From positions 124,001 through 188,000 of the forward strand of contig NZ_FYAU01000026.1 of NCBI RefSeq assembly GCF_900185725.1: a DNA stretch of 64,000 nucleotides. The letters are read 5' to 3'. How positions within the stretch are numbered: position 1 is the stretch's first letter; every line of letters starts with the position of its first letter. Both the position numbers and the translations under genes were made by a program. Positions 1,620 to 63,065 of the stretch are shown piece by piece. This DNA comes from Stappia sp. TSB10P1A (GTDB lineage: Bacteria > Pseudomonadota > Alphaproteobacteria > Rhizobiales > Stappiaceae). The notes beneath the pieces were generated by a model, which saw only the letters and a program-made list of their open reading frames with translations, was not told where the DNA came from and did no database searches.

Positions 1620-1644
1620 GGAACTTTCTCCCGCCGATTGCGTT
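1620..1644 (+). promoter_or_regulatory. EcfG-type promoter of phyR
   Basis: GGAAC at 1620-1624 and GTT at 1642-1644 with a 17-base spacer match the alphaproteobacterial EcfG/RpoE2 consensus. The site lies 45 bases before the phyR start, so phyR is probably autoregulated by the sigma factor it releases. Confidence 0.8.
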
Positions 1645-1688
1645 AGCCTTGCTGTTGAATGTCCGGACGGGCAGACAGGGAGTTCCAC

Positions 1689-2483
1689 ATGCCACTTTCC
1701 ACCCGCATTGCGTCCCATCTCCCCTACTTGCGTCGATACGCAAGAGCGGTGACGGGATCGCAGCAATCGGGCGATGCCTATGTCGCCGCCACTCTGGAGA
1801 CGCTGATCGCGGATGTCTCCTCCTTCCCGCAGACCAGCAGCGATCGCGTGTCCCTGTACAAGGTCTTCGCCGCGGTCTTCGGCTCCGTCCGGATGGACCT
1901 GCCGCCGAGCGACTCGCCCTTCGCCTGGGAGCGGCGGGCCAGCGCCAACCTTGCCGCGCTCCCCTCGTCGGAGCGCCAGGCCTTCCTGCTCACCTCCGTC
2001 GAGGGCTTCACGCCCGAGGAGACGGCGCAGATCCTCGACGTCGCCGTCGAGGACGTCGACCTGCTGCTGGCGGAGGCGGCGCGCAACATCTCCCGCCAGA
2101 TCGCCACCGACATCCTGATCATCGAGGACGAACCGCTGATCGCCATGGATATCGAGCATATCGTGACGGAACTCGGCCACCGGGTCAGCGGCGTCGCCCG
2201 CACCCACAAGGAGGCGGTCGAGCTGTTCGCGCGGACAAGGCCGCGGATGATCCTCGCCGATATCCAGCTCGCCGACGGCAGCTCCGGCATCGATGCGGTC
2301 AACGACATCCTCAAGAGCGAGCCGATGCCGGCGATCTTCATCACCGCCTTCCCCGAGCGGCTGCTGACCGGCGAGCGGCCCGAGCCGGCCTTCCTGATCA
2401 CCAAGCCGTTCAACCCCGACATGGTCCGCGCCCTGATCAGCCAGGCGCTGTTCTTCGATCAGACGGTCGAGGCTGCCGCCTGA
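1689..2483 (+). CDS. phyR: PhyR anti-anti-sigma response regulator
   Basis: A 264-residue PhyR. The N-terminal half (about 1-125) is sigma-like, with the degenerate region-4 motif LPSSERQAFLLTSVEGFTPE. The C-terminal half (about 141-255) is a receiver: acidic pair in LIIEDEPL, phospho-acceptor Asp191 in ILADIQLAD, Thr219 in FITAF and Lys239 in ITKPF. This ITKPF-type receiver (FATGUY group) is typical of PhyR. Phosphorylation exposes the sigma mimic, which sequesters NepR. The start at 1689 has GGGAG 6 bases upstream; a longer in-frame start at 1659 has none. The HWE kinase at 36666 is a candidate phospho-donor. Confidence 0.95.
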   Translation: MPLSTRIASHLPYLRRYARAVTGSQQSGDAYVAATLETLIADVSSFPQTSSDRVSLYKVFAAVFGSVRMDLPPSDSPFAWERRASANLAALPSSERQAFLLTSVEGFTPEETAQILDVAVEDVDLLLAEAARNISRQIATDILIIEDEPLIAMDIEHIVTELGHRVSGVARTHKEAVELFARTRPRMILADIQLADGSSGIDAVNDILKSEPMPAIFITAFPERLLTGERPEPAFLITKPFNPDMVRALISQALFFDQTVEAAA

Positions 2484-2506
2484 TTGGGCCTGTCGCCCTC
2501 CCCCCG

Positions 2507-2538
2507 CCCCGCGCCGCCTGCCTGCGGCGCGGGGTTTT
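2507..2538 (+). terminator. Rho-independent terminator after phyR
   Basis: An 11-bp perfect GC stem (arms 2507-2517 and 2524-2534, 6-base loop) is followed by TTTT at 2535-2538. It lies 23 bases after the phyR stop and ends the plus-strand transcript before the convergent csbD gene. Confidence 0.8.
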
Positions 2539-2571
2539 CCGTGCGGGCGGCTGCCCGCGAGGCCGGAGGTG

Positions 2572-2769
2572 TTACGGCCGCTCCAGCCAGTCGTCGACCT
2601 CGCGCCGGGCGTGTTCCTCGGCCACCCCGTAGCGCTCCTGGATCTTGCCGACGAGCTGCTTCTGGTTGCCGGCGATGACGTCGAGGTCGTCGCCGGTGAG
2701 CTGTCCCCAGCGCGCCTGCACCTTGCCCTTGAATTGCTCCCAATTGCCTTCGATCTGGTTCCAGTTCAT
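2572..2769 (-). CDS. CsbD-family stress protein
   Basis: A 65-residue hydrophilic protein opening MNWNQIEGNWEQFKGK and containing WGQLTGDDLDVIAGN and LVGKIQERYG, the whole CsbD-like domain. CsbD proteins are abundant stress-induced proteins (sigma-B dependent in Bacillus) of unknown biochemical role. The start at 2769 has AGGAG 9 bases upstream; an upstream in-frame start at 2850 has no ribosome site and lies before the predicted transcription start. An EcfG-type promoter lies at 2820-2844. Confidence 0.93.
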   Translation of the reverse strand: MNWNQIEGNWEQFKGKVQARWGQLTGDDLDVIAGNQKQLVGKIQERYGVAEEHARREVDDWLERP

Positions 2770-2819: not shown

Positions 2820-2844
2820 AACCCGCGTTTCGGAAAAAGGTTCC
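2820..2844 (-). promoter_or_regulatory. EcfG-type promoter of csbD
   Basis: Read on the minus strand, GGAAC (2844-2840) and GTT (2822-2820) are separated by 17 bases. The start codon of csbD is about 50 bases downstream. Confidence 0.8.
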
Positions 2845-2892: not shown

Positions 2893-2917
2893 GGAACCCG
2901 ATCCCGCACCGCGCGTT
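2893..2917 (+). promoter_or_regulatory. EcfG-type promoter of the AI-2E-family permease gene
   Basis: GGAAC at 2893-2897 and GTT at 2915-2917, spacer 17. It diverges from the csbD promoter. It places the transcription start near 2927, which argues that translation of the permease begins after this point. Confidence 0.72.
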
Positions 2918-2963: not shown

Positions 2964-4094
2964 TTGCACGAGGACCGGCCCGGCGTGGCGCCGACGCCTG
3001 GCACGCGGGATGAACGCGCCTTGTCGGCACCGGACCTGGAAACGCTGCTTGCGAACGCCGCGCGCCTGGCGCTGGTCGTGATCGGCCTGCTCGCCCTGAT
3101 CGCCGCGCTGGAATACGCCCGGATGATCCTGGCGCCGGTCTTCCTCGCCGTGGTGATCGGGCTGATGTTCGGCCCGCTCTCCGACAGGATCGAGCGGTTC
3201 GGCATCCCCACCTGGATCTCGGCGCTCGGCGTCGTCGCCCTGTTCCTGTCGCTGATCGCCATGACCGGAACCGCCTTCGCCGTGCCGCTGTCCGACTGGA
3301 TGGACAAGCTGCCCGACATCTGGGCCAGGCTGCAGTCGCAGCTCACCACCTGGAAGGGGCTGGTCGCCTCCTTCGGCGGCATGCAGGAGGAGCTGCGCTC
3401 GGCGCTCGGCCAGAGCACCGGCATGAAGGTCGACGTCGACAGCACCTCGCCGGTGGAGAGCGCCGTCTATTTCGCCCCCGCCTTCATGGCCCAGGTGATC
3501 CTGTTCCTCGCCAGCATGTATTTCTTCATCGCCACCCGGAAGCAGTTTCGCGAAACCGTGCTGTGGCTCTGCCCGACGTCGGCGCTGCGCCAGAGCGCCC
3601 GCCGCATCTTCAACGATGTCGAGGCGCGGGTGTCGCGCTACCTCTTGTCGATCACGGCGGTGAACATCGGCCTCGGCATCAGCGTCTCGCTCGCCCTGTG
3701 GGCGATCGGCGTGCCCTCGCCGATGCTGTGGGGCCTGCTGGCCGGGGTGCTCAACTATGTCATCTATATCGGCCCGGCGGTGATGGCGCTGCTGCTGACC
3801 GGCGTCGGCCTTGCCACCTCCGACACCACCGCCGGCATCCTCGCCCCGCCGCTGGTCTTCCTGACGCTCAACCTGATCGAGGCGCAATTCGCCACGCCCG
3901 CCGTGCTCGGCCGCACGATGACGCTGAACCCTTTCGTGGTGCTGCTCGCCATCGCCCTGTGGATCTGGCTGTGGGGGCCGGTCGGCGGCTTCATCGCCGT
4001 GCCCTCGCTGCTCATTGTCGAGACGGTGCTGATCAACATCCTGCCGCTGCGCGAGCTGGAGGAGATGCCGCCGGGGACCTCCGCGCCTGGCTAG
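2964..4094 (+). CDS. AI-2E-family (DUF20) membrane transporter
   Basis: About 376 residues in the AI-2E/TqsA/PerM family: an N-terminal pair of membrane helices (ALVVIGLLALIAALEYARM, then VFLAVVIGLMFGPL), a central soluble stretch, and four to five C-terminal helices ending LWIWLWGPVGGFIAVPSLL. These proteins export autoinducer-2-like signals or act as ion antiporters; the substrate here is unknown. The start is uncertain. The open frame reaches back to 2781, but the promoter at 2893-2917 excludes that. TTG 2964 has GGAGG 7 bases upstream, and GTG 2985 or TTG 3021 remain possible. A second family member lies at 54409-55518. Confidence 0.85.
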   Translation: MHEDRPGVAPTPGTRDERALSAPDLETLLANAARLALVVIGLLALIAALEYARMILAPVFLAVVIGLMFGPLSDRIERFGIPTWISALGVVALFLSLIAMTGTAFAVPLSDWMDKLPDIWARLQSQLTTWKGLVASFGGMQEELRSALGQSTGMKVDVDSTSPVESAVYFAPAFMAQVILFLASMYFFIATRKQFRETVLWLCPTSALRQSARRIFNDVEARVSRYLLSITAVNIGLGISVSLALWAIGVPSPMLWGLLAGVLNYVIYIGPAVMALLLTGVGLATSDTTAGILAPPLVFLTLNLIEAQFATPAVLGRTMTLNPFVVLLAIALWIWLWGPVGGFIAVPSLLIVETVLINILPLRELEEMPPGTSAPG

Positions 4095-7912: not shown

Positions 7913-7916
7913 CGTC

Positions 7917-44520: not shown

Positions 44521-44542
44521 CGGGTTCCCTCCTCGTCTGCAC

Positions 44543-48285: not shown

Positions 48286-48310
48286 AACCCGCGGGAGGCG
48301 GTTATGTTCC
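48286..48310 (-). promoter_or_regulatory. EcfG-type promoter of the secreted protein/DUF3182/hydrolase operon
   Basis: On the minus strand, GGAAC (48310-48306) and GTT (48288-48286), spacer 17, 32 bases before the ATG at 48254. Confidence 0.78.
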
Positions 48311-51379: not shown

Positions 51380-52044
51380 TCTCCGCCCTCCCCGGCCGTC
51401 GCCGCTTCGGAGGCGAGGATCCGGCGGAAGGCCTCCTCCTCGTGCACCTCCACGTCGAAGCGCATCGGCGCGTGGCCGATGCCGCAATACTCAGTGCAGA
51501 CGCCGCCGTATTTCCCGGCCCTGTCGGCATGCAGCCGCAGGATGTTGGTGTGCCCGGGAATGGCGTCGAGCTTGCCGGCGAGGCGCGGCACCCAGAACGA
51601 ATGGATGACATCCTCGCTGGTCAGCACGATGTCGACATCGCGCCCGGCGGGCAGATGCAGCAGATTGGTCGTGACATGGCCGCCGGGATAGCGGAACTGC
51701 CAGATCCACTGGCGCGCCACCGCCTCAATGCGCAGCGCCGCCGGCTCCCGCGCCGCGGCGATGCCCCGCTCCCCCAGCGCGAAGGCGGCCGCCACCAGAC
51801 CCGCCAGCAGGACGAGGGGGATGACGAGCCCGCCCCACAGGATCAGCCGCGCCTCGCCGAAGGCGCGCAGCCAGGAGGGGCGGACGACGGCCAGCACCAG
51901 CACCGAGGCGGTGGCCATGAAGATCCCCGTGCCGGCATAGGCCATGACCCACCACAGCGTCGTGGCATTGCGCGCCGACGCACTCTCCGGCTCCAGCACC
52001 GACAGCGGCCCCGAACAGGCGGACAGGACCAGGCAGCCGGCCAA
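51376..52044 (-). CDS. Cytochrome c oxidase subunit II, lipoprotein-like, start unclear
   Basis: The CuA site is intact (IHSFWVPRLAGK, then VCTEYCGIGHAPMRF), preceded by two membrane spans (WWVMAYAGTGIFMATASVLV and LILWGGLVIPLVLLAGLVAA). A lipobox LSAC lies at the N-terminus. No ATG or GTG is available in a sensible place: GGAAAGG near 52084 would serve a start at about 52070, but the codon there is GTT. TTG 52044 is the first usable start and gives a very short signal. A non-standard start or sequence error is likely. The gene diverges from the DUF2231 gene. Confidence 0.85.
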   Translation of the reverse strand: MAGCLVLSACSGPLSVLEPESASARNATTLWWVMAYAGTGIFMATASVLVLAVVRPSWLRAFGEARLILWGGLVIPLVLLAGLVAAAFALGERGIAAAREPAALRIEAVARQWIWQFRYPGGHVTTNLLHLPAGRDVDIVLTSEDVIHSFWVPRLAGKLDAIPGHTNILRLHADRAGKYGGVCTEYCGIGHAPMRFDVEVHEEEAFRRILASEAATAGEGGE

Positions 52045-52058: not shown

Positions 52059-52084
52059 GGAACCAAACGCCGGGGCCGGGCCTT
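52059..52084 (+). promoter_or_regulatory. Weak EcfG-type promoter of the DUF2231 gene
   Basis: GGAAC 52059-52063 and TT at 52083-52084 fit GGAAC-N19-TT, but the -10 triplet is CTT rather than GTT. It is 24 bases before the ATG. Confidence 0.5.
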
Positions 52085-52107: not shown

Positions 52108-52608
52108 ATGAACGAAATGAAACCCAGCGACAGTCCAGTCATCGAGAAGGTCGCGGAAGAATCCGTCGCCTCCGCCGTCGCCGTTGCCGGGCACCCGCTG
52201 CATGCGATGAGCGTGCATTTTCCGATTGCCCTGGTCGTCGCCACGCTCGGCTGCGACCTGCTGCTGTGGTGGACGGGGGACCCGTTCTGGCTGCGCGCCG
52301 GCCTGTGGTCGGCCGGCATCGCCTTTCTGGCCGGCGTCGGCGCGGGACTGGTCGGCACGGCCGAACTCCTCCTGGTCGCCGGCATCCGCATCCGGGTGGC
52401 GAGCTGGACCCATGCGGTTGCCGCGATGATGCTGATCGCGATCGCGGGAACCAACTGGGGCCTGCGCCTGACGGATCCGGCTGCCGTGCTGCCCTACGGC
52501 CTGATGCTGTCGCTGCTGGCGAGCATCTTCACCGGGCTGGCAGGCTGGCATGGCGGCAAACTGGTGTTCGATCACGGCATCGGCCTCATCATCTCGGAAG
52601 AAGATTGA
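52108..52608 (+). CDS. DUF2231 four-span membrane protein
   Basis: A 166-residue membrane protein. After about 28 polar residues comes GHPLHAMSVHFPIALVV, the His-rich DUF2231 signature, then four membrane spans. The family is often found beside cytochrome oxidase or c-type cytochrome genes and may bind heme or copper through its conserved histidines. GAAGGGAG lies upstream of the ATG. It diverges from subunit II and converges with the CopD-like gene, overlapping its end by 20 bases. Confidence 0.85.
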   Translation: MNEMKPSDSPVIEKVAEESVASAVAVAGHPLHAMSVHFPIALVVATLGCDLLLWWTGDPFWLRAGLWSAGIAFLAGVGAGLVGTAELLLVAGIRIRVASWTHAVAAMMLIAIAGTNWGLRLTDPAAVLPYGLMLSLLASIFTGLAGWHGGKLVFDHGIGLIISEED

Positions 52609-53923: not shown

Positions 53924-54412
53924 CTACCTGTCGGCCGGACCGCCGTCGCCGTACTGCCGCCGGCGCTGCTCGGCGAGCGCGCTCTCCAGCTTGCGGGCAA
54001 GGTCGAGAAGACGCTCCGGCACCGGCTCGCTCTCGACCTGCCGCAGCAGGCTGCGATAGTCGCCCCTGCGAGCGCGCCGGCGCTCCTTGCGGGGATCATC
54101 CGTGTCCTGCATTCCTGTCACCGTGGCTTTCTCGTTACGTGTCGCTGTCCGTGCCTCGATCCCGATGCCGGGCCGAGGCGGATCCGCATCGCCGGATCCG
54201 ACGGTGTCCCACCCGCCCGGACAGAGCGACCAGGGCGAGGCGGGGCGGACCGCCCTCCTCGCCTGCTGCGGCGGGTTGTCCTGCTCGTCCGGGTTGGGCA
54301 GCGGCTCCTCGTCGGGGAGCCGTTCGGGATCGGGCTCGCGCACCGGCTGCGGGGGAAACGGCAACGGCAGCGGCGGCGTGCCCGGGTCGGGAAGAGGACG
54401 GGGCGTGGTCAT
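53924..54412 (-). CDS. Proline-rich protein fused to a NepR-like segment
   Basis: A 162-residue frame. Residues 1-55 are Pro/Asp/Glu-rich (PRPLPDPGTPPLPLPFPP, PDEEPLPNPDEQD), like small stand-alone proteins of this order. Residues 56-100 look like translated spacer. The last 62 residues (from an internal ATG at 54112) contain YRSLLRQVESEP then VPERLLDLARKLESA, which aligns without gaps to the NepR core at 1347-1556 (10 of 27 identical, including V, E, P, R, L, D, L). Two genes may have fused by loss of a stop codon. AAGGAG precedes ATG 54412; the inner ATG has only a poor site. Confidence 0.6.
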   Translation of the reverse strand: MTTPRPLPDPGTPPLPLPFPPQPVREPDPERLPDEEPLPNPDEQDNPPQQARRAVRPASPWSLCPGGWDTVGSGDADPPRPGIGIEARTATRNEKATVTGMQDTDDPRKERRRARRGDYRSLLRQVESEPVPERLLDLARKLESALAEQRRRQYGDGGPADR

Positions 54413-55518
54413 GGCAAGGTCTCCTTTTGCCGCAAACCCCGTCCGGTGCCGCCGTGTTCCGCAAGATCGGAGCCGGTCCCCTTTCCCGGCAGCGGAACGG
54501 CTTCGCCCAGCGTCCCGCGCAGCCAGACCTGCTTGATCGCAACGAGACAGACGACCGCCAGCGGCGTTGCCAGCAGGATCCCCAGCGGGCCGAAGAGAAT
54601 GCCGAAAGCCAGCAGCGCGAACAGCGTCACCGCCGGCGGCAGGGCGACGGTCTGCTGCTGGATCAGCGGGTTGAGCAGGTTTCCCTCCATCTGCTGGATC
54701 GCCAGATACAGCAGCAGGACCCAGACCGTCGTGGCGGTATCGACGGACAGCGCGATGGCGAGCGCGGGAACGGTTGCCAGCACCGGCCCGACAAAGGGGA
54801 CGAATTCGAGGATGCCGGCGATGAAGCCGAGCGCCAGCGCCGCCTCGATGCCCAGCGCCCACAGGCCCAGGAAAGTGAGCGTGCCGACCACCAGCATCGA
54901 GGCGATCTGGCCCATCAGCCAGCGCTGCAGCGCAGTGCCCAGCGCATCGAGGGTGCTGGCGGCACCGGCCCGCAACCGGCGCGGAAACATGAGCAGAAAG
55001 CCATGGAGATAGAGGCCCGGCTGGGAGCCCATATAGAGCCCCGCGACAATGACCAGAACCCCGTTCGCCAGCAGCGTCAGGGCCCATCCCGACAGGCCGG
55101 CGATCCGGCTCATCACGTCCACTTCGGACATCATGGCTTCCGCCCGCTCGACCAGCCAGTCGCCGATATTGCCGCCGCCGAGCCAGTGTTCGAGCGGCGC
55201 CAGCAGCTCCGGCAGTTGGTCGCGCAACTGCAGGAGCTGTGCCTGAAGCTGGGATCCGAGAATGGCGAAGAACAGGACGATCGCCAGGGCCGCGGCGAGG
55301 CTCGCCACCGCGAACGACCAGCCGTTGCCGGTGCCGGTGACCCGGGAGACGAGGGAGGCGAGGCCGCGCAGGGCCACGGCGAGCAGGATCGCCGCGAAGA
55401 CCAGCAGCAGCAGGTGCCGCAGGTACCACAGCGCCAGCGCCGCAATCACGACGAAGGCAACGGCCAGCAGCCGCTGCGCGAAGGGGCCGAGAGCGGGCGG
55501 AGAGATCGAGCCGTTCAT
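54409..55518 (-). CDS. AI-2E-family membrane transporter, second copy
   Basis: A 369-residue AI-2E/PerM-type protein: two N-terminal spans (LAVAFVVIAALALWYL, LLLLVFAAILLAVAL), a soluble middle part, and C-terminal spans with EFVPFVGPVLATVPALAIAL and YLAIQQMEGNLLNPLIQQQ, the best conserved family block. The start at 55518 has no strong ribosome site. Its last codons overlap the next gene and contain that gene's promoter. No EcfG-type site was found upstream of this gene. The substrate is unknown. Confidence 0.88.
   Translation of the reverse strand: MNGSISPPALGPFAQRLLAVAFVVIAALALWYLRHLLLLVFAAILLAVALRGLASLVSRVTGTGNGWSFAVASLAAALAIVLFFAILGSQLQAQLLQLRDQLPELLAPLEHWLGGGNIGDWLVERAEAMMSEVDVMSRIAGLSGWALTLLANGVLVIVAGLYMGSQPGLYLHGFLLMFPRRLRAGAASTLDALGTALQRWLMGQIASMLVVGTLTFLGLWALGIEAALALGFIAGILEFVPFVGPVLATVPALAIALSVDTATTVWVLLLYLAIQQMEGNLLNPLIQQQTVALPPAVTLFALLAFGILFGPLGILLATPLAVVCLVAIKQVWLRGTLGEAVPLPGKGTGSDLAEHGGTGRGLRQKETLP
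54435..54460 (-). promoter_or_regulatory. EcfG-type promoter of the NepR-like fusion gene
   Basis: On the minus strand, GGAAC (54460-54456) and GTT (54437-54435), spacer 18, inside the 3' end of the AI-2E-family gene and 23 bases before the ATG at 54412. Confidence 0.7.
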
Positions 55519-55680: not shown

Positions 55681-55705
55681 GGAACATCCGCCCGCGCGCG
55701 CAGTT
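55681..55705 (+). promoter_or_regulatory. EcfG-type promoter of the DUF3008-BON operon
   Basis: GGAAC 55681-55685, GTT 55703-55705, spacer 17, 35 bases before the ATG at 55740. Confidence 0.78.
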
Positions 55706-55739: not shown

Positions 55740-55934
55740 ATGCCCGCGAAATCCAAGTCCCAGCAGAAGGCCGCCGGCGCGGCCCTGTCGGCGAAACGGG
55801 GCGAGACGAAGAAGAGCGATCTGAAAGGCGCATCGAGGCAGATGCTGGACTCGATGAGCGAGGAGCAGCTCGAGGAGATGGCCTCCACCTCCCGCAAGGG
55901 CAAACCGGACCACGTTTCCAAGTCGAAATCCTAG
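55740..55934 (+). CDS. DUF3008-family small stress protein
   Basis: A 64-residue basic, hydrophilic protein: MPAKSKSQQKAAGAALSAKR, then SDLKGASRQMLDSMSEEQLEEMA and RKGKPDHV, the complete DUF3008 pattern. These proteins are abundant in alphaproteobacterial stress regulons and resemble KGG-type or DNA-protecting small proteins; the function is unknown. GGAG lies before the ATG. It is followed after 12 bases by a BON-domain gene in one operon. Confidence 0.9.
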   Translation: MPAKSKSQQKAAGAALSAKRGETKKSDLKGASRQMLDSMSEEQLEEMASTSRKGKPDHVSKSKS

Positions 55935-55946: not shown

Positions 55947-56225
55947 ATGGTTCTGAAAGACCGGCGCTTCTTCGGCGCCCCCGCCGAGCACCGGGCGCCC
56001 CGCTCCCCCGCCGCCGAACTCGAGGCACAGGTAGCCTGCGCCCTTGCCGATGACGGCGAGGTCGATGCCTCCGACGTTGCCGTCACCGCCAGCGGGGATG
56101 AGATCACCCTGTCCGGCACGGTCACGCGGACCGAGGAAATCGGGCGATGCTCGCGGATCGCGCTGCGGGTGGACGGCGTTGGCAGCGTTCGCAACGTCAT
56201 CGGCGTCTGGGGCTCGAAGATGTAG
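55947..56225 (+). CDS. Single BON-domain protein
   Basis: A 92-residue protein: about 20 residues of leader and one BON domain (LEAQVACALADDGEVDASDV, VTASGDEITLSGTVTRTEEI, VDGVGSVRNVIGVW). The domain order alpha-beta-beta-alpha-beta and the conserved Gly in LSGTV fit OsmY-like folds. No signal peptide. AGGAGGG lies 7 bases before the ATG. It probably shares the EcfG-type promoter at 55681-55705. Confidence 0.9.
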   Translation: MVLKDRRFFGAPAEHRAPRSPAAELEAQVACALADDGEVDASDVAVTASGDEITLSGTVTRTEEIGRCSRIALRVDGVGSVRNVIGVWGSKM

Positions 56226-56341: not shown

Positions 56342-56608
56342 TTAGTCGGGGCTCCTCTGCAAGGACTCGTCCGGCAGGACCGGCGAAGACGGCGGATAGT
56401 CCGGCTGCTGGGTCGTGGCGGGTTCCTGCGCCGGTTCGTCCGGCGCCAGCGCGATCTCGCGATAGAGGTCGACGCCCCACCAGTAGACCAGCGCCAGCAG
56501 CAGCGAGACCACGAGCAGGATCAGGATGCGGGGCGACCCCGTCCCCTGTCTTGCCTTGCCGGGCGGCAGTTCGACCGGCTCGTCCCTGGTGTCCCGTTTG
56601 TCGTTCAT
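56342..56608 (-). CDS. Small single-span membrane protein
   Basis: An 88-residue protein: polar N-terminus, one span (ILILLVVSLLLALVYWWGVDLY, about residues 28-49), and an acidic, Pro/Gln-rich tail (APDEPAQEPATTQQPDYPP). GGAAGG lies 7 bases before the ATG at 56608. The frame is open upstream to an ATG at 56794, which would add 62 residues with another hydrophobic segment; the promoter at 56821-56845 is compatible with either. The function is unknown. Confidence 0.75.
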   Translation of the reverse strand: MNDKRDTRDEPVELPPGKARQGTGSPRILILLVVSLLLALVYWWGVDLYREIALAPDEPAQEPATTQQPDYPPSSPVLPDESLQRSPD

Positions 56609-56820: not shown

Positions 56821-56845
56821 AACCCGCACGCGCCGCGATGGTTCC
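56821..56845 (-). promoter_or_regulatory. EcfG-type promoter of the 88-residue membrane protein gene
   Basis: On the minus strand, GGAAC (56845-56841) and GTT (56823-56821), spacer 17. Transcription would start near 56812, about 200 bases before the preferred ATG or 18 before the alternative one. Confidence 0.72.
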
Positions 56846-56875: not shown

Positions 56876-56900
56876 GGAACCTCGGCGCGCGCCGCGGGTT
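56876..56900 (+). promoter_or_regulatory. EcfG-type promoter of the Cys-rich protein/otsA operon
   Basis: GGAAC 56876-56880, GTT 56898-56900, spacer 17, 28 bases before the ATG at 56928. It diverges from the promoter at 56821-56845. Confidence 0.78.
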
Positions 56901-56927: not shown

Positions 56928-57164
56928 ATGGGCACGTGCCACCAATGCGGCAACGACTACGACAAGGCCTTCGAGGTGACGATGGCGGGCTCGACCTATG
57001 TCTTCGACAGCTTCGAATGCGCCATCCAGGCGCTGGCGCCGTCCTGCCCCCATTGCGGCTGCAGGGTGATCGGCCACGGCGTCGAGGCGGGCGGCACCAT
57101 CTATTGCTGCGCCCATTGCGCCGCCCGGGAAGGCGCGACGCAGCTCGCCGACCGGGCGCCCTGA
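56928..57164 (+). CDS. Small cysteine-rich zinc-ribbon or metallothionein-like protein
   Basis: A 78-residue protein with nine cysteines: MGTCHQCGNDYDKAF, FDSFECAIQAL, SCPHCGCRVIGHGVE and YCCAHCAAR. The CxxC pairs suggest binding of one or more zinc ions, like prokaryotic metallothioneins or zinc ribbons. AAAGGAG precedes the ATG. The trehalose-6-phosphate synthase gene follows 127 bases downstream with no terminator between, so the two are probably co-transcribed. Confidence 0.82.
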   Translation: MGTCHQCGNDYDKAFEVTMAGSTYVFDSFECAIQALAPSCPHCGCRVIGHGVEAGGTIYCCAHCAAREGATQLADRAP

Positions 57165-57291: not shown

Positions 57292-58662
57292 ATGAGCAGA
57301 CTGGTGGTCGTCTCCAACCGCGTCGCCAACCTGCGCAGCACCAACCAGGCCGGCGGCCTCGCCGTCGGGCTGGCGGACACGCTGAAGCAGCGGGAAGGCA
57401 TCTGGTTCGGCTGGAACGGCGCCGCCGACGGGGTGACCGGCGGCGAAGCGCAGGTGGAAAGGGTCGGCCGCGCCGAGCAGGTGACGGTCCCCCTGTCGCC
57501 CGAGGACATCGCCAACTACTATCTCGGCTATGCCAACAGCGTGCTGTGGCCGCTGTTCCACTACCGGCTCGACCTCGTCGACTACCGGCCGGCGTTTTTC
57601 GAGAGCTACCAGCGGGTCAACGAGACCTTCGCGCGGCAGCTCGCGCCGCTGCTCAAGGCCGACGACCTCGTCTGGGTGCACGACTATCACCTGATCCCGC
57701 TCGCCCGGTGCCTGCGCAAGCTCGGCTGCCGCCAGCGGATCGGCTTCTTCCTCCACATTCCCTTTCCTCCGCCCGACATTCTCGTCGCCTCGCCCAATCA
57801 TGCGGAACTGGTCGACGCCTTGCTGGACTATGACGTCATCGGCTTCCAGACCCACACCGACGCGGGCAATCTCAAGGCCTATCTCGGCGAGCGCCTGTCG
57901 GCGGTGCAGCTCGGCGACACCCGCTTCCAGGTCGGCGGCCGCAGCGTCACGATCGACCGCTTCCCGATCGGCATCGACGCGCGCGGCTTCGCGGCCATGA
58001 CCCGGCAGGCCGACGACGAGGTGCAGATCGACCTGATGCGCCGGCGGGTGCTGGGCAGGCGCCAGATCATCGGCGTCGACCGGCTCGACTATTCCAAGGG
58101 CCTGCCCGAGCGGCTGAAGGCCTTCGACCGGCTGATGGCGCAGCACCCGGAGCTGGAGAAATCGGTGACCTATCTGCAGGTCGCCCCGCCGACCCGCGAG
58201 GAGGTCGGCGCCTATGGCGACATCCGCGCCGAGCTGGAGGCGCTGGTCGGGGCGATCAACGGCCGGCTCGCCGACTTCAACTGGACGCCGATCCGCTACA
58301 TCCACCGCAGCGTCGACCGGAGCAAGCTGGCACCCCTGATGCGCGGCAGCCAGGTCGGCTTCGTCACCCCCTTGCGCGACGGCATGAACCTCGTCGCCAA
58401 GGAATATGTCGCGGCTCAAGATCCGGAAGACCCCGGCGTCCTCGTCCTGTCGCGCTTCGCCGGCGCCGCCGAGGAGATGGACGAGGCGCTGCTGGTCAAC
58501 CCCTATGACATCGACGAGATGGCCCGAAGTCTCCACCGCGCCCTGACCATGCCGCTGGCCGAACGGCGGCAGCGCCATGCGGCCCTGCTGGAGCAGGTTT
58601 TGCGGCACGATTCGAAAGCCTGGCTCGACGCCTTCCTGAGCGCGCTCGCGCACCGGCGCTAA
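57292..58662 (+). CDS. otsA: Trehalose-6-phosphate synthase
   Basis: A 456-residue GT20 enzyme that makes trehalose-6-phosphate from UDP-glucose and glucose-6-phosphate. Visible blocks are VVVSNRVA at the N-terminus, GGLAVGL, the substrate motifs VWVHDYHLIPLA and FFLHIPFPPPDIL, VDRLDYSKGLPERLKAF, and GMNLVAKEYVA near the C-terminus. The length is normal for OtsA. An in-frame ATG at 57166 would add 42 low-complexity residues (MAPGMAPDMA repeats) and was not used. No trehalose-phosphate phosphatase (OtsB) is in the window. Confidence 0.95.
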   Translation: MSRLVVVSNRVANLRSTNQAGGLAVGLADTLKQREGIWFGWNGAADGVTGGEAQVERVGRAEQVTVPLSPEDIANYYLGYANSVLWPLFHYRLDLVDYRPAFFESYQRVNETFARQLAPLLKADDLVWVHDYHLIPLARCLRKLGCRQRIGFFLHIPFPPPDILVASPNHAELVDALLDYDVIGFQTHTDAGNLKAYLGERLSAVQLGDTRFQVGGRSVTIDRFPIGIDARGFAAMTRQADDEVQIDLMRRRVLGRRQIIGVDRLDYSKGLPERLKAFDRLMAQHPELEKSVTYLQVAPPTREEVGAYGDIRAELEALVGAINGRLADFNWTPIRYIHRSVDRSKLAPLMRGSQVGFVTPLRDGMNLVAKEYVAAQDPEDPGVLVLSRFAGAAEEMDEALLVNPYDIDEMARSLHRALTMPLAERRQRHAALLEQVLRHDSKAWLDAFLSALAHRR

Positions 58663-58677: not shown

Positions 58678-58702
58678 GGAACAGACGCACCGCCCGCGTG
58701 TT
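58678..58702 (+). promoter_or_regulatory. EcfG-type promoter of two small genes after otsA
   Basis: GGAAC 58678-58682, GTT 58700-58702, spacer 17, 25 bases before the ATG at 58727. Confidence 0.75.
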
Positions 58703-58726: not shown

Positions 58727-58906
58727 ATGTGGAACAGGCTTCAGGGTCTCATGAGCGAACTGCTGCCCGGCTGGGCACGGAACCGGGCGCTGCGGCGCCG
58801 GCGTGCCTCTCCACGCCCTCCGATAAAGGGCGAGGTCGTTCCGCCTCCGGCCGACCGGCCCCCGGTCGATCGCAACGCCCCACCCACAGGAGGAGGCAAT
58901 GCCTGA
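58727..58906 (+). CDS. 59-residue Arg/Pro-rich small protein
   Basis: AAGGAGG lies 9 bases before the ATG. The protein begins MWNRLQGLMSELLPGW, has an Arg cluster (RNRALRRRRAS) and a Pro-rich tail. It overlaps the next gene by 8 bases, with that gene's ribosome site inside its last codons. Its promoter, ribosome site and coupling support a real gene, although it is short and of unknown function. Confidence 0.6.
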   Translation: MWNRLQGLMSELLPGWARNRALRRRRASPRPPIKGEVVPPPADRPPVDRNAPPTGGGNA

Positions 58907-59156
58907 CCCGCGAAAACCAGACCGCCGATCTCGCCCTTCGAAAGGGATGAACCGCATCTCGCGCTTTGTTCTCGTCAACCTGGCGACAGGCATGCTGGTC
59001 GGGGTGCTGGTCGGCGCCGCGTATCTGCACTGGATCGGCGAGGTCGGCCTGCTGTTTCGCGAGCCGCTCGCGGCGGCGATGCTGCTGTGGAGCTTTGCCG
59101 CCAGCACCGGCATGGGAGCGGTGGGAACGGGACTGGCCCTGCTCGGCGACGACTGA
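58899..59156 (+). CDS. Small two-span membrane protein
   Basis: An 85-residue protein: basic N-terminus (DPRKPDRRSRPSKG), then spans at about 25-46 (LVNLATGMLVGVLVGAAYLHW) and 57-80 (AAAMLLWSFAASTGMGAVGTGLAL). AGGAGG is 2 bases from the ATG at 58899, and a second start, Met17, is possible. It is coupled to the 59-residue gene. The function is unknown; the layout matches small envelope stress proteins. Confidence 0.7.
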   Translation: MPDPRKPDRRSRPSKGMNRISRFVLVNLATGMLVGVLVGAAYLHWIGEVGLLFREPLAAAMLLWSFAASTGMGAVGTGLALLGDD

Positions 59157-59254: not shown

Positions 59255-60496
59255 TCACTTCTCTTCCAGATAGCGGCGCATGTCCTCCACCTGCGAGGCC
59301 GAGACCGGCCCCGCCTTCCGCTCGCCGGCATGGCGCAGATAGGTGAGAAGATCGGCGACCTGCCGGTCGCTCAGCTTCCAGGCGAAGGGAGGCATGGCGA
59401 GCTGGCTCGGGGCGGCCCTGGTCGCCTCCGCGCGGGCGCCGCCAAGGATGATGCGGATGGCGGTGGAGGGGTCCTCGGCCGCGACCTTGTTGGAGCTGCC
59501 GAGCGGCGCAAAGATATAGGGCACCCCCGCCCGATCGGCCGCGTGACAGGCGGCGCAATTGTCGAAATAGATCGCCGCGCCGATCTCCAGCCGCGCCTGG
59601 TCCGGTGCCTCCGGCGCCTCTCGCGGCCGGTCGTCGAGGCTCTTCAGATAGACCGCCATCGCCCGCAGGTCCTCCTCCGCCAGGTGCTGGGTGGACAGGC
59701 CGACGACCTCGCCCATGCGCTGCATCGGCGCGGTGTGGCGGGCGCGTCCGTCGCGCAGGAAGCGCACGATGTCCTCCACCTCCCAGTCGGCGATGCCGCC
59801 GTTGACGCCGCCGCGGATGTTGGGCGCGAACCAGTTCTCCAGCGTGCCGCCCCTCAGATACTCGTCGTCCTTGTCCGCTCCCAGCACGTTCTTGCCGGTG
59901 TGGCAGGCGCCGCAATGGGCAAGGGCATCGACGAGATAGCGGCCGCGGTTCCACTCCTGCGGGCGGTCCGGATCGACCGCGAATTCGCGCTGCTCGAAGA
60001 ACAGCATCTTCCAGCCGGCAAGCGTCTGGCGAAGGGTCAGCGGGAACGGCAACTCATTCTCCGGCCGCTCGTTCCTCACCGGCTCGAGGGTGAAGAGATA
60101 ATCGTAGATCGCATCGGCATCCGCGCGCGAGATCAAGGTGAAATGGGTATAGGGCATCGCCGGGTAGAGATGCTCGCCGTCGCGGCCGACGCCCTCGTTG
60201 AGGGCGCGGTAGAACTCGTCGCGCGACCAGCGGCCGATGCCCGTGGTCTCGTCCGGCGTCAGGTTCGCCGAATAGATGACGCCGAACGGCGTCTCCAGGC
60301 CGCGGCCACCGGCATAGGCTTCGCCATCCTCCTCGATATTGGTGTGGCAGGCCATGCAATCGGCGGCGGTCGCCAGATAGCGGCCGCGCTCCACCTGCGA
60401 GAAGGCGAGTTCCTGCGCCGGCGCGGACGGGACGGCACCAAGGCCGAGCCCGCCGGCGAGCGTGCTCGCCAGCAGCATGTCGCGCAGCCGTCTCAT
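59255..60496 (-). CDS. Periplasmic triheme cytochrome c subunit of a dehydrogenase
   Basis: A 413-residue secreted protein with signal peptide (MRRLRDMLLASTLAGGLGLG, cleaved near APAQE) and three heme motifs: CMACH, CGACH and CAACH. It matches the cytochrome subunit of gluconate, alcohol or FAD-glucose dehydrogenases, which passes electrons to ubiquinone or a terminal oxidase. The C-terminal part after the third heme lacks a clear membrane anchor. The start at 60496 overlaps the GMC gene stop by four bases (ATGA). Confidence 0.93.
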   Translation of the reverse strand: MRRLRDMLLASTLAGGLGLGAVPSAPAQELAFSQVERGRYLATAADCMACHTNIEEDGEAYAGGRGLETPFGVIYSANLTPDETTGIGRWSRDEFYRALNEGVGRDGEHLYPAMPYTHFTLISRADADAIYDYLFTLEPVRNERPENELPFPLTLRQTLAGWKMLFFEQREFAVDPDRPQEWNRGRYLVDALAHCGACHTGKNVLGADKDDEYLRGGTLENWFAPNIRGGVNGGIADWEVEDIVRFLRDGRARHTAPMQRMGEVVGLSTQHLAEEDLRAMAVYLKSLDDRPREAPEAPDQARLEIGAAIYFDNCAACHAADRAGVPYIFAPLGSSNKVAAEDPSTAIRIILGGARAEATRAAPSQLAMPPFAWKLSDRQVADLLTYLRHAGERKAGPVSASQVEDMRRYLEEK

Positions 60497-62253
60497 GTCC
60501 GCACCAAGGGTCCCGGATCGGGGAGATAGCGGCTGACGATGGCCTCGGCCGACCAGTAGGCCAGCGCCGCCACGGTTGCGGTCGGGTTGTATCCGGCGTT
60601 CTGCGGGAAGAGCCCGGCGCCGCTGACGAACAGGTTCGGCAGGTCCCAGCTCTGGCAATAGCGGTTGACGACGCTCGTCGCCGGATCGGTCCCCATGATG
60701 GTGCCTCCCGTGTTATGCGTGGTCTGATAGGGCATCGTGTCGTAGGAGCCGCGGCGGGCGTTGACCTTGATCTCGCGCCCGCCCATGCCGCGGGCGATCT
60801 CCTCGGCAACCGGCGTCAGATGCGCGGTCAGCCGCCGGTCGTTGAGCGTGAAATCGTAGGTCATGCGCAGCAGCGGCCGCCCGCGCGCATCCGTATAGGT
60901 CGGATCGAGATCGAGATGGTTGCCGCGATGCGCCATGGAAGCGCCATGCACCCCGACATCGGCCGTCTTCAGGAAGTTCTCGCGCACCGCCCGCTTCCAG
61001 CGCGAGCCCCAGTTCGGCACGCCCTCGGGCACCGGATGGCTCTCGATCGGGCGGGCATTGGTGGTGTTGCAGGCGATGTAGCCGCCGCCGATGAAGCCGA
61101 GGCCGGAATGGTCGAAATTGTCGCCGTTGTAATCGTCGACCGCCATGCCCAGCGCGCCGGCCCCGACGAAGCCGTTGGTATGCTCCTCCTCGAAGAAGAC
61201 GGTGACCGACGACATCACCTGATAGCAGTAGTTCTTGCCGACGACCCCTTCGCCGCTGCGCGGATCGTACGGCGTGCCGATATTCGACAGCAGCAGCAGC
61301 CGCGTGTTCTGCAGGGGATAGGCACACAGGACGACAATCTCGGCCGGCTGGAAGACCACTTCGCCGCTGGTGTCGACATAGGTGACGCCGGAGGCGCGCG
61401 AGCCGTCGGCCGTCTTCTCCACCGACAGCACTTCCGAGTTGGTGCGCAGGGAGAAGTTCCTGCGCTGCATCAGGGCGGGAAGGATGGTGGTCTGGGGCGA
61501 GGCCTTGGAGTAGTTGCCGCAGCCGTATTTCTCGCAGTAGCCGCAATAGGTGCAAGGGGCGAGCTGCATGCCGAGCGGATTGACATAGGCGCGCGACATG
61601 TTCGCCGACGGCACCGGAAACGGGCTCAGGCCGAGCTGCCGCGCCGCCTCGCCGAACCGGTCCTGCGAGAAGGTCATCTGCATCGGCGGGGTCGGATAGT
61701 GATCGCTGCGCGGACCCTCGAAGGGATTGCCGCCGGGGAGGATCTCGCCGCGCAGGTTTCCCGCCTGGCCGCCGATGCCGCAGATCTTGTCGAAATGGTC
61801 GAAATGCGGCTCGAGCTCGTCATAGGTGACGCCGTAGTCCTGCACCGTCATGTCCGGCGGCAGGGGGCCGTAGCGCTCCTCGTTGTGGCTGCGGGCGACG
61901 AAGTCGGACGGCAGGAAGCGGTAGGTCTGGCCGTTCCAGTGGACGCCGGCGCCGCCCACCCCGTTGCCGGGCAGGAACGAGCCCCAGCGCCGCATCGGCA
62001 GCGCCGTCTGGGCGCTGTTGTTGCGGAACGTCAGCGTCTCCTGCGAAGCCTCCTGGAACATGGCGTGACGCCAGTAGTAGCGCAGCTCGTCCTGGGCGAA
62101 GGTGGTGGCGAAATCGCTGTGGGTGTCGCGCCAGGGTCCGCGTTCGAGCGCCAGCACCTCAAGCCCCGCGGCCGTCAGCTTTTCGGCATACATCGCGCCG
62201 GTCCAGCCGAAGCCGATCAGCACCACATCGACGCGTGGACGTTGCTTGGTCAT
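60493..62253 (-). CDS. GMC-family FAD dehydrogenase, large subunit (gluconate/glucose dehydrogenase type)
   Basis: A 586-residue flavoprotein: FAD motif VVLIGFGWTGAMYAEKL, substrate-side GNGVGGAGVHWNGQTYR, cysteine cluster CTYCGYCEKYGC that in FAD-glucose dehydrogenases holds a 3Fe-4S centre, active-site TTHNTGGTIMG, and C-terminal SGAGLFPQNAGYNPTATV. No signal peptide of its own; related proteins are exported by hitch-hiking on the Tat-targeted small subunit. It lies 25 bases after that small-subunit gene and overlaps the cytochrome gene. Substrate: a sugar, sugar acid or alcohol. Confidence 0.93.
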   Translation of the reverse strand: MTKQRPRVDVVLIGFGWTGAMYAEKLTAAGLEVLALERGPWRDTHSDFATTFAQDELRYYWRHAMFQEASQETLTFRNNSAQTALPMRRWGSFLPGNGVGGAGVHWNGQTYRFLPSDFVARSHNEERYGPLPPDMTVQDYGVTYDELEPHFDHFDKICGIGGQAGNLRGEILPGGNPFEGPRSDHYPTPPMQMTFSQDRFGEAARQLGLSPFPVPSANMSRAYVNPLGMQLAPCTYCGYCEKYGCGNYSKASPQTTILPALMQRRNFSLRTNSEVLSVEKTADGSRASGVTYVDTSGEVVFQPAEIVVLCAYPLQNTRLLLLSNIGTPYDPRSGEGVVGKNYCYQVMSSVTVFFEEEHTNGFVGAGALGMAVDDYNGDNFDHSGLGFIGGGYIACNTTNARPIESHPVPEGVPNWGSRWKRAVRENFLKTADVGVHGASMAHRGNHLDLDPTYTDARGRPLLRMTYDFTLNDRRLTAHLTPVAEEIARGMGGREIKVNARRGSYDTMPYQTTHNTGGTIMGTDPATSVVNRYCQSWDLPNLFVSGAGLFPQNAGYNPTATVAALAYWSAEAIVSRYLPDPGPLVRT

Positions 62254-62278
62254 GGGTCTCCCTCTGCCGGGCGCGCAT

Positions 62279-63013
62279 CTACGGACCGGACCAGCCGGGC
62301 CGCCCCGAAAGGCCGACCGGTTCCAGCACGATGGCCGCCCCGTTGTGGTTGATGAAATCGCGATAGTCGTAGCGGGTGCCCGGGAAGCCGACATAGCGCC
62401 AGCCAACCATGTCGCGGTTGCCGCCATAGATCGGATCGGCAAAGAAGCCCTCGATCGCGTTTTCAAGGACGAGGTCGAAGAACGTCTTCGCCGAGACGCG
62501 ATCGAACTCGATCTCCTCGCCCTCCAGGCCGGCGAGGATGGCGTCCTGGTCGTCGGCGCCGAGATCCGCGAAGGGCGCGCCATGCTCCGCCCGGCAGTAG
62601 GCATCGAGCTCCGCCAGCGCCAGCCGGTAGAGCATCGCCGGCGGATGCTCGCTCTGATAGCCTTGCGTCGAGGTCCCCTCGCCGAAGGGGCCCTTCATGT
62701 ACCAGTTCTGGCCGCGGCCGTAGAAGCCGGCCAACTGCCGGTCGATGAAGGTGACGACATCGGCTTCCGCCGCCCCGGCCCCGTCCTCGTCGCTGGGAAT
62801 GAGGCGGGCACAGATGGCCGCCACGGCCGCGTGCTCGGCAGGACCGAGGAAACGCTCCTCGCCGGTGCCGTGATGGGGAACGTCTCCCGACATCGGCGCC
62901 CAAGGGGTGCCTTCGCCCTGGCCGTATTCCCGCGCCATAAGGCGCGGCGCGGCAAGGGCGGTGCCGGCCAGCAGCAAAAGCCTCACCGCCTGGCGTCGTG
63001 TGAAGGACGTCAC
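62279..63013 (-). CDS. Gluconate 2-dehydrogenase subunit 3-family (small) subunit with Tat signal
   Basis: A 244-residue protein. The GTG start at 63013 has GGGAG 7 bases upstream. The N-terminus FTRRQAVRLLLLAGTALAAP is a twin-arginine signal, so the complex is folded before export. The body (ICARLIPSDEDGAGAAEADV, YDYRDFINHNG) is typical of subunit 3, which binds and chaperones the large subunit. First gene of a three-gene operon behind an EcfG-type promoter. Confidence 0.9.
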   Translation of the reverse strand: MTSFTRRQAVRLLLLAGTALAAPRLMAREYGQGEGTPWAPMSGDVPHHGTGEERFLGPAEHAAVAAICARLIPSDEDGAGAAEADVVTFIDRQLAGFYGRGQNWYMKGPFGEGTSTQGYQSEHPPAMLYRLALAELDAYCRAEHGAPFADLGADDQDAILAGLEGEEIEFDRVSAKTFFDLVLENAIEGFFADPIYGGNRDMVGWRYVGFPGTRYDYRDFINHNGAAIVLEPVGLSGRPGWSGP

Positions 63014-63040
63014 GTCTCGTCTCCCGGTTTCCCCCCGCCC

Positions 63041-63065
63041 AACCCGCGAAAGCGCGGCGTGTTCC
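63041..63065 (-). promoter_or_regulatory. EcfG-type promoter of the periplasmic dehydrogenase operon
   Basis: On the minus strand, GGAAC (63065-63061) and GTT (63043-63041), spacer 17, 28 bases before the GTG start at 63013. Confidence 0.75.

What the first reader, a model, noticed from the sequence alone, without database searches (positions are those of the whole stretch)
1620..63065. A stress-regulon island marked by nineteen EcfG-type promoters
GGAAC-N17/18-GTT sites (one with CTT) lie 20-210 bases before the start of phyR, csbD, the first AI-2E gene, and genes at 36422, 36666/38608, 40164, 40454, 43767, 45451, 45600, 48254, 52108, 54412, 55740, 56608, 56928, 58727 and 63013. I saw none at the transporter gene starts I examined between 4 and 36 kb. 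The genes concerned include many unknown small proteins, so the set predicts a stress role for them.
Basis: partly seen in the sequence, partly recalled or inferred. Interest (0 to 1): 0.85.

Follow-up and report, generated by a model that had tools for sequence, protein, structure and literature searches.

The report
Stress-response genes gathered in one block
In this bacterium many genes of the general stress response, together with the switch proteins that control them, appear to be packed into one stretch of the chromosome, and the two halves of that stretch use slightly different start signals, which may explain why the bacterium keeps several versions of the same switch.

Summary
GGAAC-N16-18-GTT occurs 29 times in the window against 2.0 in shuffles. 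Promoter-like copies: 21 in two clusters (36 kb), 3 in 400 kb of control, 0 in the 33 kb between and 75 kb of flanks. Aligned with up to four relatives, the boxes are 79-81% identical, the spacer 49%, upstream DNA 42%.

The block (C28:119.4-188.3 kb) exceeds the window. It holds all four PhyR/EcfG matches of the genome, both clear NepR and a divergent third. Outside it the strict motif (14.6 per Mb) is no denser than in two congeners where no EcfG was found; against the reversed-pattern control, however, three of four relatives show more hits than their blocks explain.

New: two promoter dialects. Base 6 is A in 0 of 33 sites of segment A but 67 of 86 of segment B, which carries a divergent EcfG2. 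That EcfG2 alone reads segment B is a bold hypothesis; G008, without ecfG2, keeps 7 of 9 A.

The parts
751..1245 (-). ecfG1, ECF sigma factor of the EcfG type (start may lie further upstream)
   Evidence: Pfam Sigma70_r2, r4_2 and PhyR_sigma2; clade with G012, G005, G002, G008, G001, G003
1347..1556 (-). nepR1, anti-sigma factor
   Evidence: Pfam NepR 1.2e-12
1620..1644 (+). EcfG-type promoter of phyR (GGAACT class)
   Evidence: site in 4 of 4 orthologues
1659..2483 (+). phyR, anti-anti-sigma response regulator
   Evidence: PhyR_sigma2 1e-26, PhyR_sigma-like, Response_reg; the other three PhyR_sigma2 matches of the genome are the EcfG genes
2572..2769 (-). csbD-like stress protein
   Evidence: Pfam CsbD 7.6e-19
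2820..2844 (-). promoter of csbD (GGAACC class)
   Evidence: 4 of 4 orthologues
2893..2917 (+). promoter of the first AI-2E family gene (GGAACC class)
   Evidence: 4 of 4 orthologues
2985..4094 (+). AI-2E family transporter
   Evidence: Pfam 5.5e-40
36371..36395 (+). promoter of 36422..36610 (62-aa protein of unknown family)
   Evidence: 3 of 3 orthologues
36666..38480 (-). HWE histidine kinase with dCache sensor; likely input to PhyR (inferred)
   Evidence: Pfam HWE_HK 6.6e-19, dCache_1 1.4e-12; its putative site 38549(-) is not conserved (0 of 4)
38547..38572 (+). promoter of the short-chain dehydrogenase 38608..39573 (GGAACA)
   Evidence: 3 of 3 orthologues; Pfam adh_short_C2
40238..40263 (-). 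promoter of the CBS-domain protein 39730..40164 (GGAACA)
   Evidence: 3 of 3 orthologues; Pfam CBS
40383..40408 (+). promoter of the BON-domain protein 40454..41128 (GGAACA)
   Evidence: 4 of 4 orthologues; Pfam BON
43841..43865 (-). promoter of the small-protein / phospholipase-D / endonuclease run downstream (43767 to 40971)
   Evidence: relatives have GGAAC-N17-CTT, 3 of 3; none has GTT
43942..44601 (-). ecfG2, divergent EcfG paralogue without adjacent nepR
   Evidence: Pfam; separate branch
   Evidence: 3 of 3 orthologues have a site, base 6 A or C
45483..45507 (-). promoter of Cu/Zn superoxide dismutase 44930..45451 (GGAACA)
   Evidence: 4 of 4 orthologues; Pfam Sod_Cu
45516..45541 (+). 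promoter of the 99-aa protein 45600..45899 (GGAACA)
   Evidence: 3 of 3 orthologues
48286..48310 (-). promoter of the 141-aa protein 47829..48254 (GGAACA)
   Evidence: 3 of 3 orthologues, all 31 b upstream
48531..51999 (-). cytochrome c oxidase genes: 109-aa protein, subunit I (840 aa), subunit II with CuA motif CTEYCGIGHAPM; no site of their own found
   Evidence: Pfam COX1, COX2; translation; no site upstream
52059..52084 (+). CTT-variant promoter of DUF2231 protein 52108..52608
   Evidence: GGAAC-N18-CTT 23 b upstream in 4 of 4 orthologues
   Evidence: 4 of 4 orthologues; Pfam Caa3_CtaG, UPF0093
53924..54112 (-). nepRL, divergent NepR-like protein
   Evidence: Pfam NepR 6.1e-4, below cut-off; profile-profile 96% over 32 columns; found in G012, G005, G002, G008
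54435..54460 (-). promoter of the proline-rich small gene starting at 54412, then nepRL (GGAACA)
   Evidence: 3 of 4 orthologues of nepRL; reading frame seen
55681..55705 (+). promoter of DUF3008 protein 55740..55934 and probably the BON protein 55947..56225 (GGAACA)
   Evidence: 4 of 4 orthologues; Pfam
56821..56845 (-). promoter of the 88-aa protein 56342..56608
   Evidence: 4 of 4 orthologues, about 180-210 b upstream
56876..56900 (+). promoter of the 78-aa protein 56928..57164 (GGAACC)
   Evidence: 3 of 3 orthologues
57292..58662 (+). trehalose-6-phosphate synthase family (GT20); relatives have their own site, this genome has none
   Evidence: Pfam Glyco_transf_20; 4 of 4 relatives with site, none here
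58678..58702 (+). putative promoter of 58729..58950 (73 aa); untested for lack of orthologues
59255..63013 (-). cytochrome c with three CxxCH motifs, GMC oxidoreductase, gluconate 2-dehydrogenase subunit 3
   Evidence: Pfam; CMACH, CGACH, CAACH
63041..63065 (-). promoter of the gluconate-dehydrogenase-like operon (GGAACA)
   Evidence: 1 of 1 orthologue
63165..64000 (-). PRC-barrel protein, promoter just past the window end (C28:188157)
   Evidence: Pfam PRC; site, 1 of 1 orthologue

Best explanation
A consolidated general stress response (GSR) locus. The GGAAC-N17/18-GTT (rarely CTT) sites are EcfG promoters. HWE kinases in the block phosphorylate PhyR; PhyR-P takes NepR off the EcfG sigma factors; these transcribe about 24 short units inside the same 69-kb block, among them phyR itself, nepR3-ecfG3-kinase and ecfG2, which gives positive feedback. 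Two clusters (A, C28:119.4-126.9 kb; B, 160.4-188.3 kb) flank a stretch of mostly transporter genes with no intergenic site. Shown: the sites, their local excess, their conservation, the regulator genes, the synteny. Inferred: that EcfG reads the sites, that the kinases feed PhyR, and that the small unknown proteins are induced by stress.
For: 29 sites against 2.0 in shuffles. Promoter-like intergenic sites: 21 in 36.0 kb of clusters, 3 in 400 kb control, 0 in 33 kb between, 0 in 75 kb of flanks (Poisson p 1.7e-32). Strict pattern: 23 of 97 genome hits fall in 69.4 kb of 5130 kb (p 4.5e-22). Alignment made without asking for the motif, 22 groups and 70 orthologue rows: GGAAC 81%, GTT 79%, spacer 49%, upstream 42%, downstream 60% identity; 45 of 70 rows have all 8 box bases aligned and identical. 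Sites present in 69 of 73 orthologues of genes with a site here (kinase, 0 of 4, left out; 69 of 77 with it) against 5 of 352 control genes. All four PhyR_sigma2 matches of the genome (E <= 0.001) and three of its four NepR matches (E <= 1; the fourth has E 0.5) lie in the block. Outside the block 74 strict hits, 14.6 per Mb, against 17.7 and 18.9 per Mb in two congeners where no PhyR, EcfG or NepR was found.
Against: No expression data. Genome-wide the loose pattern shows no excess over its reversed control. Confinement to the block is less sure than the promoters: 18 of 74 outside hits are intergenic and 8 lie within 300 b of a gene, a few scoring as high as true sites, one of them before a 51-aa membrane protein. 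In relatives the strict pattern exceeds its reversed control by more than their blocks explain (100 against 45, 106 against 48, 114 against 50, 106 against 68 in G002, G005, G012, G008; with 27, 26, 26 and 16 intergenic sites in the fetched blocks), so dispersed targets there are possible. Promoters that depart from GGAAC would not be counted outside. No site was found before nepR1-ecfG1 or before the oxidase subunits. G008 lacks orthologues of 11 of 26 cluster-B genes between 36422 and 58662.
Confidence: 0.9

Rival explanations
1. Two-dialect model (an extension of the best explanation): EcfG1/EcfG3 serve segment A through GGAAC[C/T] promoters and the divergent EcfG2 serves segment B through GGAACA promoters, so the block is two adjoining sub-regulons, the second a module that can also sit elsewhere.
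For: Base 6 is A in 0 of 33 sites of segment A and 67 of 86 of segment B in five genomes; in this genome alone 0 of 7 and 12 of 18, p 0.005; by orthologue group 0 of 6 and 15 of 19, p 0.0012 (one tie counted as C). Outside these five: 9 of 13 A near ecfG2-type genes (G011 contig C1, Aquamicrobium L006) against 10 of 97 near phyR loci. G011 has a diverged copy of cluster B (DUF3008, CBS, SDR, cox, ctaG, GMC, gluconate dehydrogenase subunit, ecfG2-like) on another contig than its phyR. EcfG2 differs in region 4 (GLRGVSYEEAT for GASGFSYEEAA). In Rhizobium etli two EcfG paralogues prefer their own promoters (PMC3892343, passages).
Against: G008 has no ecfG2 match yet keeps A at 7 of 9 segment-B sites. 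The 56928 group is C in 4 of 4 genomes, the 36422 group C in 3 of 4, and ecfG2's own site is mixed. Species rows are not independent and n outside is 13. The G011 gene is a very long branch whose place in the tree is unsure. In Methylobacterium the paralogues appear to recognise similar promoters (PMC4814048, section 19).
Confidence: 0.4
2. Most sites are chance matches or are kept because the DNA is GC-rich or coding.
For: Ten of 29 window matches lie inside genes; the loose pattern is no commoner than its reversed control genome-wide. The minus-strand match at 38549 is a mirror artefact.
Against: No shuffle of 100 exceeded 6; 3 promoter-like sites in 400 kb control; boxes conserved above spacer and flanks.
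Confidence: 0.02
3. A recently acquired genomic island that happens to carry stress genes.
For: Clear clustering; the segment 4105-15595 differs from the DNA that relatives have in that place.
Against: Same order and same left-flank genes in four relatives, orthologues 52-98% identical; GC 0.65-0.72 throughout the window; no tRNA; no integrase or transposase among the proteins scanned.
Confidence: 0.04
4. Another ECF sigma factor with a GGAAC -35 box (RpoE type) reads the sites.
For: GGAAC alone is shared by several ECF groups (recalled, from no call).
Against: The -10 GTT is part of the published EcfG element (GGAAC-N16-CGTT in R. etli, GGAAC-N17-20-GTT in Sphingomonas), and the EcfG genes found in this genome all lie in this block.
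Confidence: 0.04

Closest known systems
General stress response of Alphaproteobacteria (PhyR-NepR-EcfG partner switch)
   Same: PhyR, NepR, EcfG and HWE kinases, EcfG promoter before phyR and before a nepR-ecfG operon; targets of the known kinds csbD, trehalose synthesis and PRC-barrel proteins (named in PMC7083833 and PMC6599016, passages)
   Different: Candidate targets lie in one block with the regulators. The Sphingomonas table I saw lists targets numbered from 0072 to above 3500 (PMC6599016), which looks dispersed; Sphingopyxis is credited with 79 units (PMC7083833) and Methylobacterium with 136 of 223 EcfG1 targets bearing the motif (PMC4814048), positions not seen. My searches listed no description of such a block
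Rhizobium etli canonical EcfG1 and non-canonical EcfG2 (PMC3892343)
   Same: A second EcfG without adjacent nepR or phyR; preference of each factor for its own promoter
   Different: No EcfG2 motif could be found there; here a candidate one, GGAACA-N17/18-GTT, is proposed, and ecfG2 sits among its presumed targets
Methylobacterium extorquens multiple EcfG and NepR paralogues (PMC4814048)
   Same: Several EcfG and NepR copies; NepR homologues that bind PhyR and may not act on EcfG (passages)
   Different: There the paralogues seem to recognise similar promoters; here three ecfG genes and a promoter difference between gene clusters

Membership tests
Alphaproteobacterial general stress response | PhyR with sigma-like domain and receiver | tested here: met
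   PhyR_sigma2 1e-26, PhyR_sigma-like 4.1e-18, Response_reg 4.6e-11
Alphaproteobacterial general stress response | NepR anti-sigma factor near ecfG and phyR | tested here: met
   nepR1 1.2e-12, nepR3 8.3e-11
Alphaproteobacterial general stress response | EcfG sigma factor next to nepR | tested here: met
   ecfG1 beside nepR1; nepR3 and ecfG3 overlap by 4 b. Not so for ecfG2
Alphaproteobacterial general stress response | HWE/HisKA2 kinase in the locus | tested here: met
   36666..38480; C28:120606-122270
Alphaproteobacterial general stress response | EcfG-type promoter before phyR and before nepR-ecfG | tested here: inconclusive
   Met for phyR and nepR3-ecfG3; none found before nepR1-ecfG1
Alphaproteobacterial general stress response | Stress-dependent transcription of the targets through EcfG | not testable with these tools
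   No expression data
NepR (nepRL, 53924..54112) | Pfam NepR score over the curated cut-off | tested here: not met
   19.8 bits, cut-off 25.7; profile-profile 96% over 32 columns, profiles of 5 and 25 rows. NepR-like, not filed as NepR
Mobile genomic island | Integrase, tRNA or composition shift, patchy presence | tested here: not met
   and the Pfam scans; a dedicated integrase search was not done and not every protein was scanned

The most novel reading that the evidence does not exclude
The block is two general stress sub-regulons side by side, each with its own sigma factor and its own promoter dialect. Segment B is a self-contained, transplantable module: a divergent EcfG2 reading GGAACA-N17/18-GTT/CTT, a divergent NepR-like protein to restrain it, and targets that include superoxide dismutase, trehalose synthesis (site in the relatives) and a respiratory bypass (gluconate/sugar dehydrogenase with three-haem cytochrome c, and the assembly factor of a CuA oxidase whose own subunit genes lie beside it without a site). 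G011 carries a diverged version of the module apart from its phyR locus. (Lowered from 0.33 on re-checking, because the oxidase subunit genes have no site of their own.)
Probability: 0.3. Interest if true: 0.78.

Novelty: new variant of a known kind. Interest (0 to 1): 0.62.

Why it matters
Half of the completed alphaproteobacterial genomes had two or more EcfG-like genes, with the role of the extra copies not satisfactorily explained (PMC3892343, abstract as shown). Here a motif difference maps onto two gene clusters, one of which carries the divergent EcfG, so paralogue specificity becomes testable with a handful of reporters. A regulon largely gathered in one block also hands over a short list of unknown small proteins (DUF3008, DUF2231, BON/SWFGD, the 99- and 141-aa proteins) as likely stress proteins, and offers relatives in which the module is partly lost (G008), placed elsewhere (G011) or its regulators not found at all (G009, G013).

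Tried and rejected
Rejected: chance matches; mobile island; the minus-strand site before the kinase. The match at 46748 is conserved but lies inside a coding region (DUF3182), so it says nothing. Left out of counts: four entries (the 45930 gene for that reason, and the second genes at 55947, 42002 and C28:120041); these plus 46655 and the kinase 36666 (0 of 4). The position weight matrix was trained on exact matches in relatives, so its scores for exact sites are biased upward and serve only for ranking. The gene finder is my own simple script trained on this window; on lower-GC genomes it under-calls genes (coding 0.23 in G019, 0.33 in L006, 0.55 in G001, 0.61 in G014), so 'intergenic' counts there are too high; 11 sites of G019 and 11 of G014 remain in the 97. 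In the 3-kb stretches it may also under-call, which would inflate the 18. The reversed-pattern control is imperfect; I take the EcfG-free congeners as the better one, but it is only two genomes with rounded sizes, and the reversed control favours dispersed extra sites in relatives. I expected G008 (no ecfG2) to have lost the GGAACA class; it has not. DUF3008 is missing in 8 of 14 congeners, not only in the EcfG-free ones. Orthologues of the right end of cluster B (59255-64799) were seen only in G002, because the stretches taken from G005 and G012 end at the trehalose gene. Rfam at gathering thresholds gave nothing in the window. The naming of the organism as Stappia or near kin rests on one inference: the contig length of G005 equals that of a Stappia sp. 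WLB 29 record. Papers: no hit for Stappia with EcfG; one irrelevant hit for Stappia with general stress response; searches around clustering, synteny, paralogues and oxidase listed no paper that describes such a block in its title or abstract start. Seen: passages and section 19 of PMC3892343 and of PMC4814048, passages of PMC7083833 and PMC6599016; all other papers only as search listings.

Full report
WHAT WAS CLAIMED AND WHETHER IT IS THERE. The pattern GGAAC-N16-18-GTT occurs 29 times in the 64-kb window; 100 dinucleotide shuffles give 1.99 on average and never more than 6. Three lie in 1-4 kb, three in 4-36 kb (all inside genes) and 23 in 36-64 kb.

CONTROLS. The window is C28:124001-188000 of a 5.13-Mb genome in 64 contigs. 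I took 400 kb from four other contigs and 75 kb flanking the clusters. Promoter-like sites (intergenic, at most 300 b before a gene on the same strand) number 5 in cluster A (7.5 kb), 16 in cluster B (28.5 kb), 0 in the 33 kb between, 0 in both flanks, and 3 in the 400-kb control (Poisson p 1.7e-32). A strict pattern, GGAACHN15-16SGTT, has 97 hits in the genome, 23 of them in the 69-kb block. Of the 74 outside, 18 are intergenic and 8 lie within 300 b of a gene.

HOW FAR THE REGULON IS CONFINED. The loose pattern is no commoner genome-wide than its reverse (284 against 415; 196 against 186 for N17-18). Two congeners, G009 and G013, in which no NepR (E <= 0.01) and no PhyR/EcfG match (E <= 0.001) was found, each have 83 strict hits, 17.7 and 18.9 per Mb, while this genome has 14.6 per Mb outside the block. 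By that measure nothing is left to explain outside the block, apart from a few high-scoring candidates such as the one before a 51-aa membrane protein on C27. The reversed pattern gives another picture: 97 against 68 here, but 100 against 45, 106 against 48 and 114 against 50 in G002, G005 and G012, more than the 26-27 intergenic sites of their fetched blocks. So 'essentially all in one block' is well supported for this genome and open for its relatives.

THE BLOCK IS BIGGER THAN THE WINDOW. Intergenic sites run from C28:119424 to 188251. To the left lie PLDc_N, then nepR3, ecfG3 and a HisKA_2/HWE kinase in one run, DUF1328 and a PRC-barrel protein; to the right DUF892. All four PhyR_sigma2 matches of the genome (PhyR and three EcfG) and both clear NepR matches are here, with a third, sub-threshold NepR at window 53924-54112; the only other NepR match has E 0.5. 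The third protein aligns to NepR over 32 columns at 96% probability but fails the Pfam cut-off, so I call it NepR-like.

CONSERVATION. Four congeners (G002, G005, G008, G012) have the block in the same order, with the same genes on the left flank and a site-free stretch of about 30-33 kb in the middle that is mostly transporter genes. The segment 4105-15595 of this genome has no orthologues in their blocks, which have other DNA there. Orthologues of 59255-64799 were seen only in G002, since two of the stretches end before it. Aligning upstream regions without asking for the motif, 22 gene groups and 70 orthologue rows give identity 81% in GGAAC, 79% in GTT, 49% in the spacer, 42% in the 40 b upstream, 60% downstream; all 8 box bases agree in 45 of 70 rows. 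A site is present in 69 of 73 orthologues of genes that have one here, leaving out the kinase (0 of 4), against 5 of 352 control genes. Trehalose-phosphate synthase has a site in 4 of 4 relatives but none here. The minus-strand site before the kinase at 36666 mirrors the plus-strand site and is not conserved.

TWO DIALECTS. The base after GGAAC differs between the clusters. In the five genomes it is A in 0 of 33 sites of segment A and in 67 of 86 of segment B; in this genome alone 0 of 7 and 12 of 18 (p 0.005); by orthologue group 0 of 6 and 15 of 19 (p 0.0012). Segment B contains ecfG2, which branches apart from ecfG1 and ecfG3 and has a changed region 4. Elsewhere, sites near ecfG2-type genes (G011 contig C1, and Aquamicrobium zhengzhouense L006) have A in 9 of 13, sites near phyR loci in 10 of 97 (intergenic calls in lower-GC genomes are loose). 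G011 C1 also carries diverged copies of DUF3008, CBS, SDR, oxidase, CtaG and GMC/gluconate dehydrogenase genes beside its ecfG2-like gene, apart from its phyR contig. Against EcfG2 as sole reader: G008 has no ecfG2 match and keeps A in 7 of 9 segment-B sites; the 56928 group is C in 4 of 4, the 36422 group C in 3 of 4.

MECHANISM. Most likely: kinases in the block phosphorylate PhyR, which takes NepR off the EcfG factors; these read the block, including phyR, nepR3-ecfG3-kinase and ecfG2, as a self-amplifying switch. Cluster B adds SOD, CBS, BON and DUF3008/DUF2231 proteins, in relatives trehalose synthesis, and a candidate respiratory chain: gluconate-dehydrogenase-like proteins with a cytochrome of three CxxCH motifs behind one site, the oxidase assembly factor CtaG behind another, and between them an oxidase whose subunit II has the CuA ligands but no site of its own. 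Regulator identity, sites, synteny and conservation are shown; promoter activity, stress induction and paralogue specificity are inferred.

WHAT IS KNOWN. The partner switch, the promoter motif and multiple EcfG/NepR copies are known (PMC3892343, PMC4814048, PMC7083833, PMC6599016; passages and single sections seen). In R. etli EcfG1 and EcfG2 prefer their own promoters, but no EcfG2 motif was found; in Methylobacterium the paralogues seem to recognise similar promoters. In nine paper searches I saw no listing that describes a GSR regulon gathered into one block, nor a base-6 dialect; subscription papers are mostly not held. Verdict: a real and conserved feature, new as an arrangement and as a hypothesis on paralogue specificity, not a new kind of system.

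Noticed in passing
window 4105-15595: Segment (DAO and GMC oxidoreductases, ABC transporter, GntR-aminotransferase regulator, MR_MLE enzyme, aldehyde dehydrogenase) without orthologues in the corresponding place of G002, G005, G008, G012, which have other DNA of about 9 kb there: a variable segment inside the block.
   Followed up: partly
window 26068-30936: Sigma-54 activator response regulator, HAMP/HATPase kinase and a solute-binding protein in a row, 79-92% identical in four relatives: looks like a three-component uptake sensor in the middle stretch.
   Followed up: no
genomes G009 and G013 (same genus): No NepR and no PhyR/EcfG match although 99% complete: apparent loss of the general stress response in two congeners.
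   Followed up: partly
G011:C1:1-22400 (L147, L148): A diverged copy of cluster B with an ecfG2-like gene, on another contig than the phyR locus, with A at base 6 in 6 of 9 sites.
   Followed up: partly
L006 (Aquamicrobium zhengzhouense), 4701-5246 and 9923-10534: Two EcfG2-like genes 5 kb apart, one 78% identical to ecfG2 here, one very divergent.
   Followed up: no
window 54124-54412 (-): Small proline-rich protein (MTTPRPLPDPGTPPLPLPFPPQ...) without Pfam or NCBIfam match, first gene before nepRL and in the same open frame as nepRL in this genome.
   Followed up: partly
G000:C27:235427-235451: High-scoring GGAACA site 50 b before a 51-aa glycine-rich membrane protein: the best candidate for a target outside the block.
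   Followed up: no
window 46746-46772: Motif on both strands inside the DUF3182 gene, kept in 3 of 3 orthologues, 86-116 b before an alpha/beta hydrolase; coding conservation explains it equally well.
   Followed up: no
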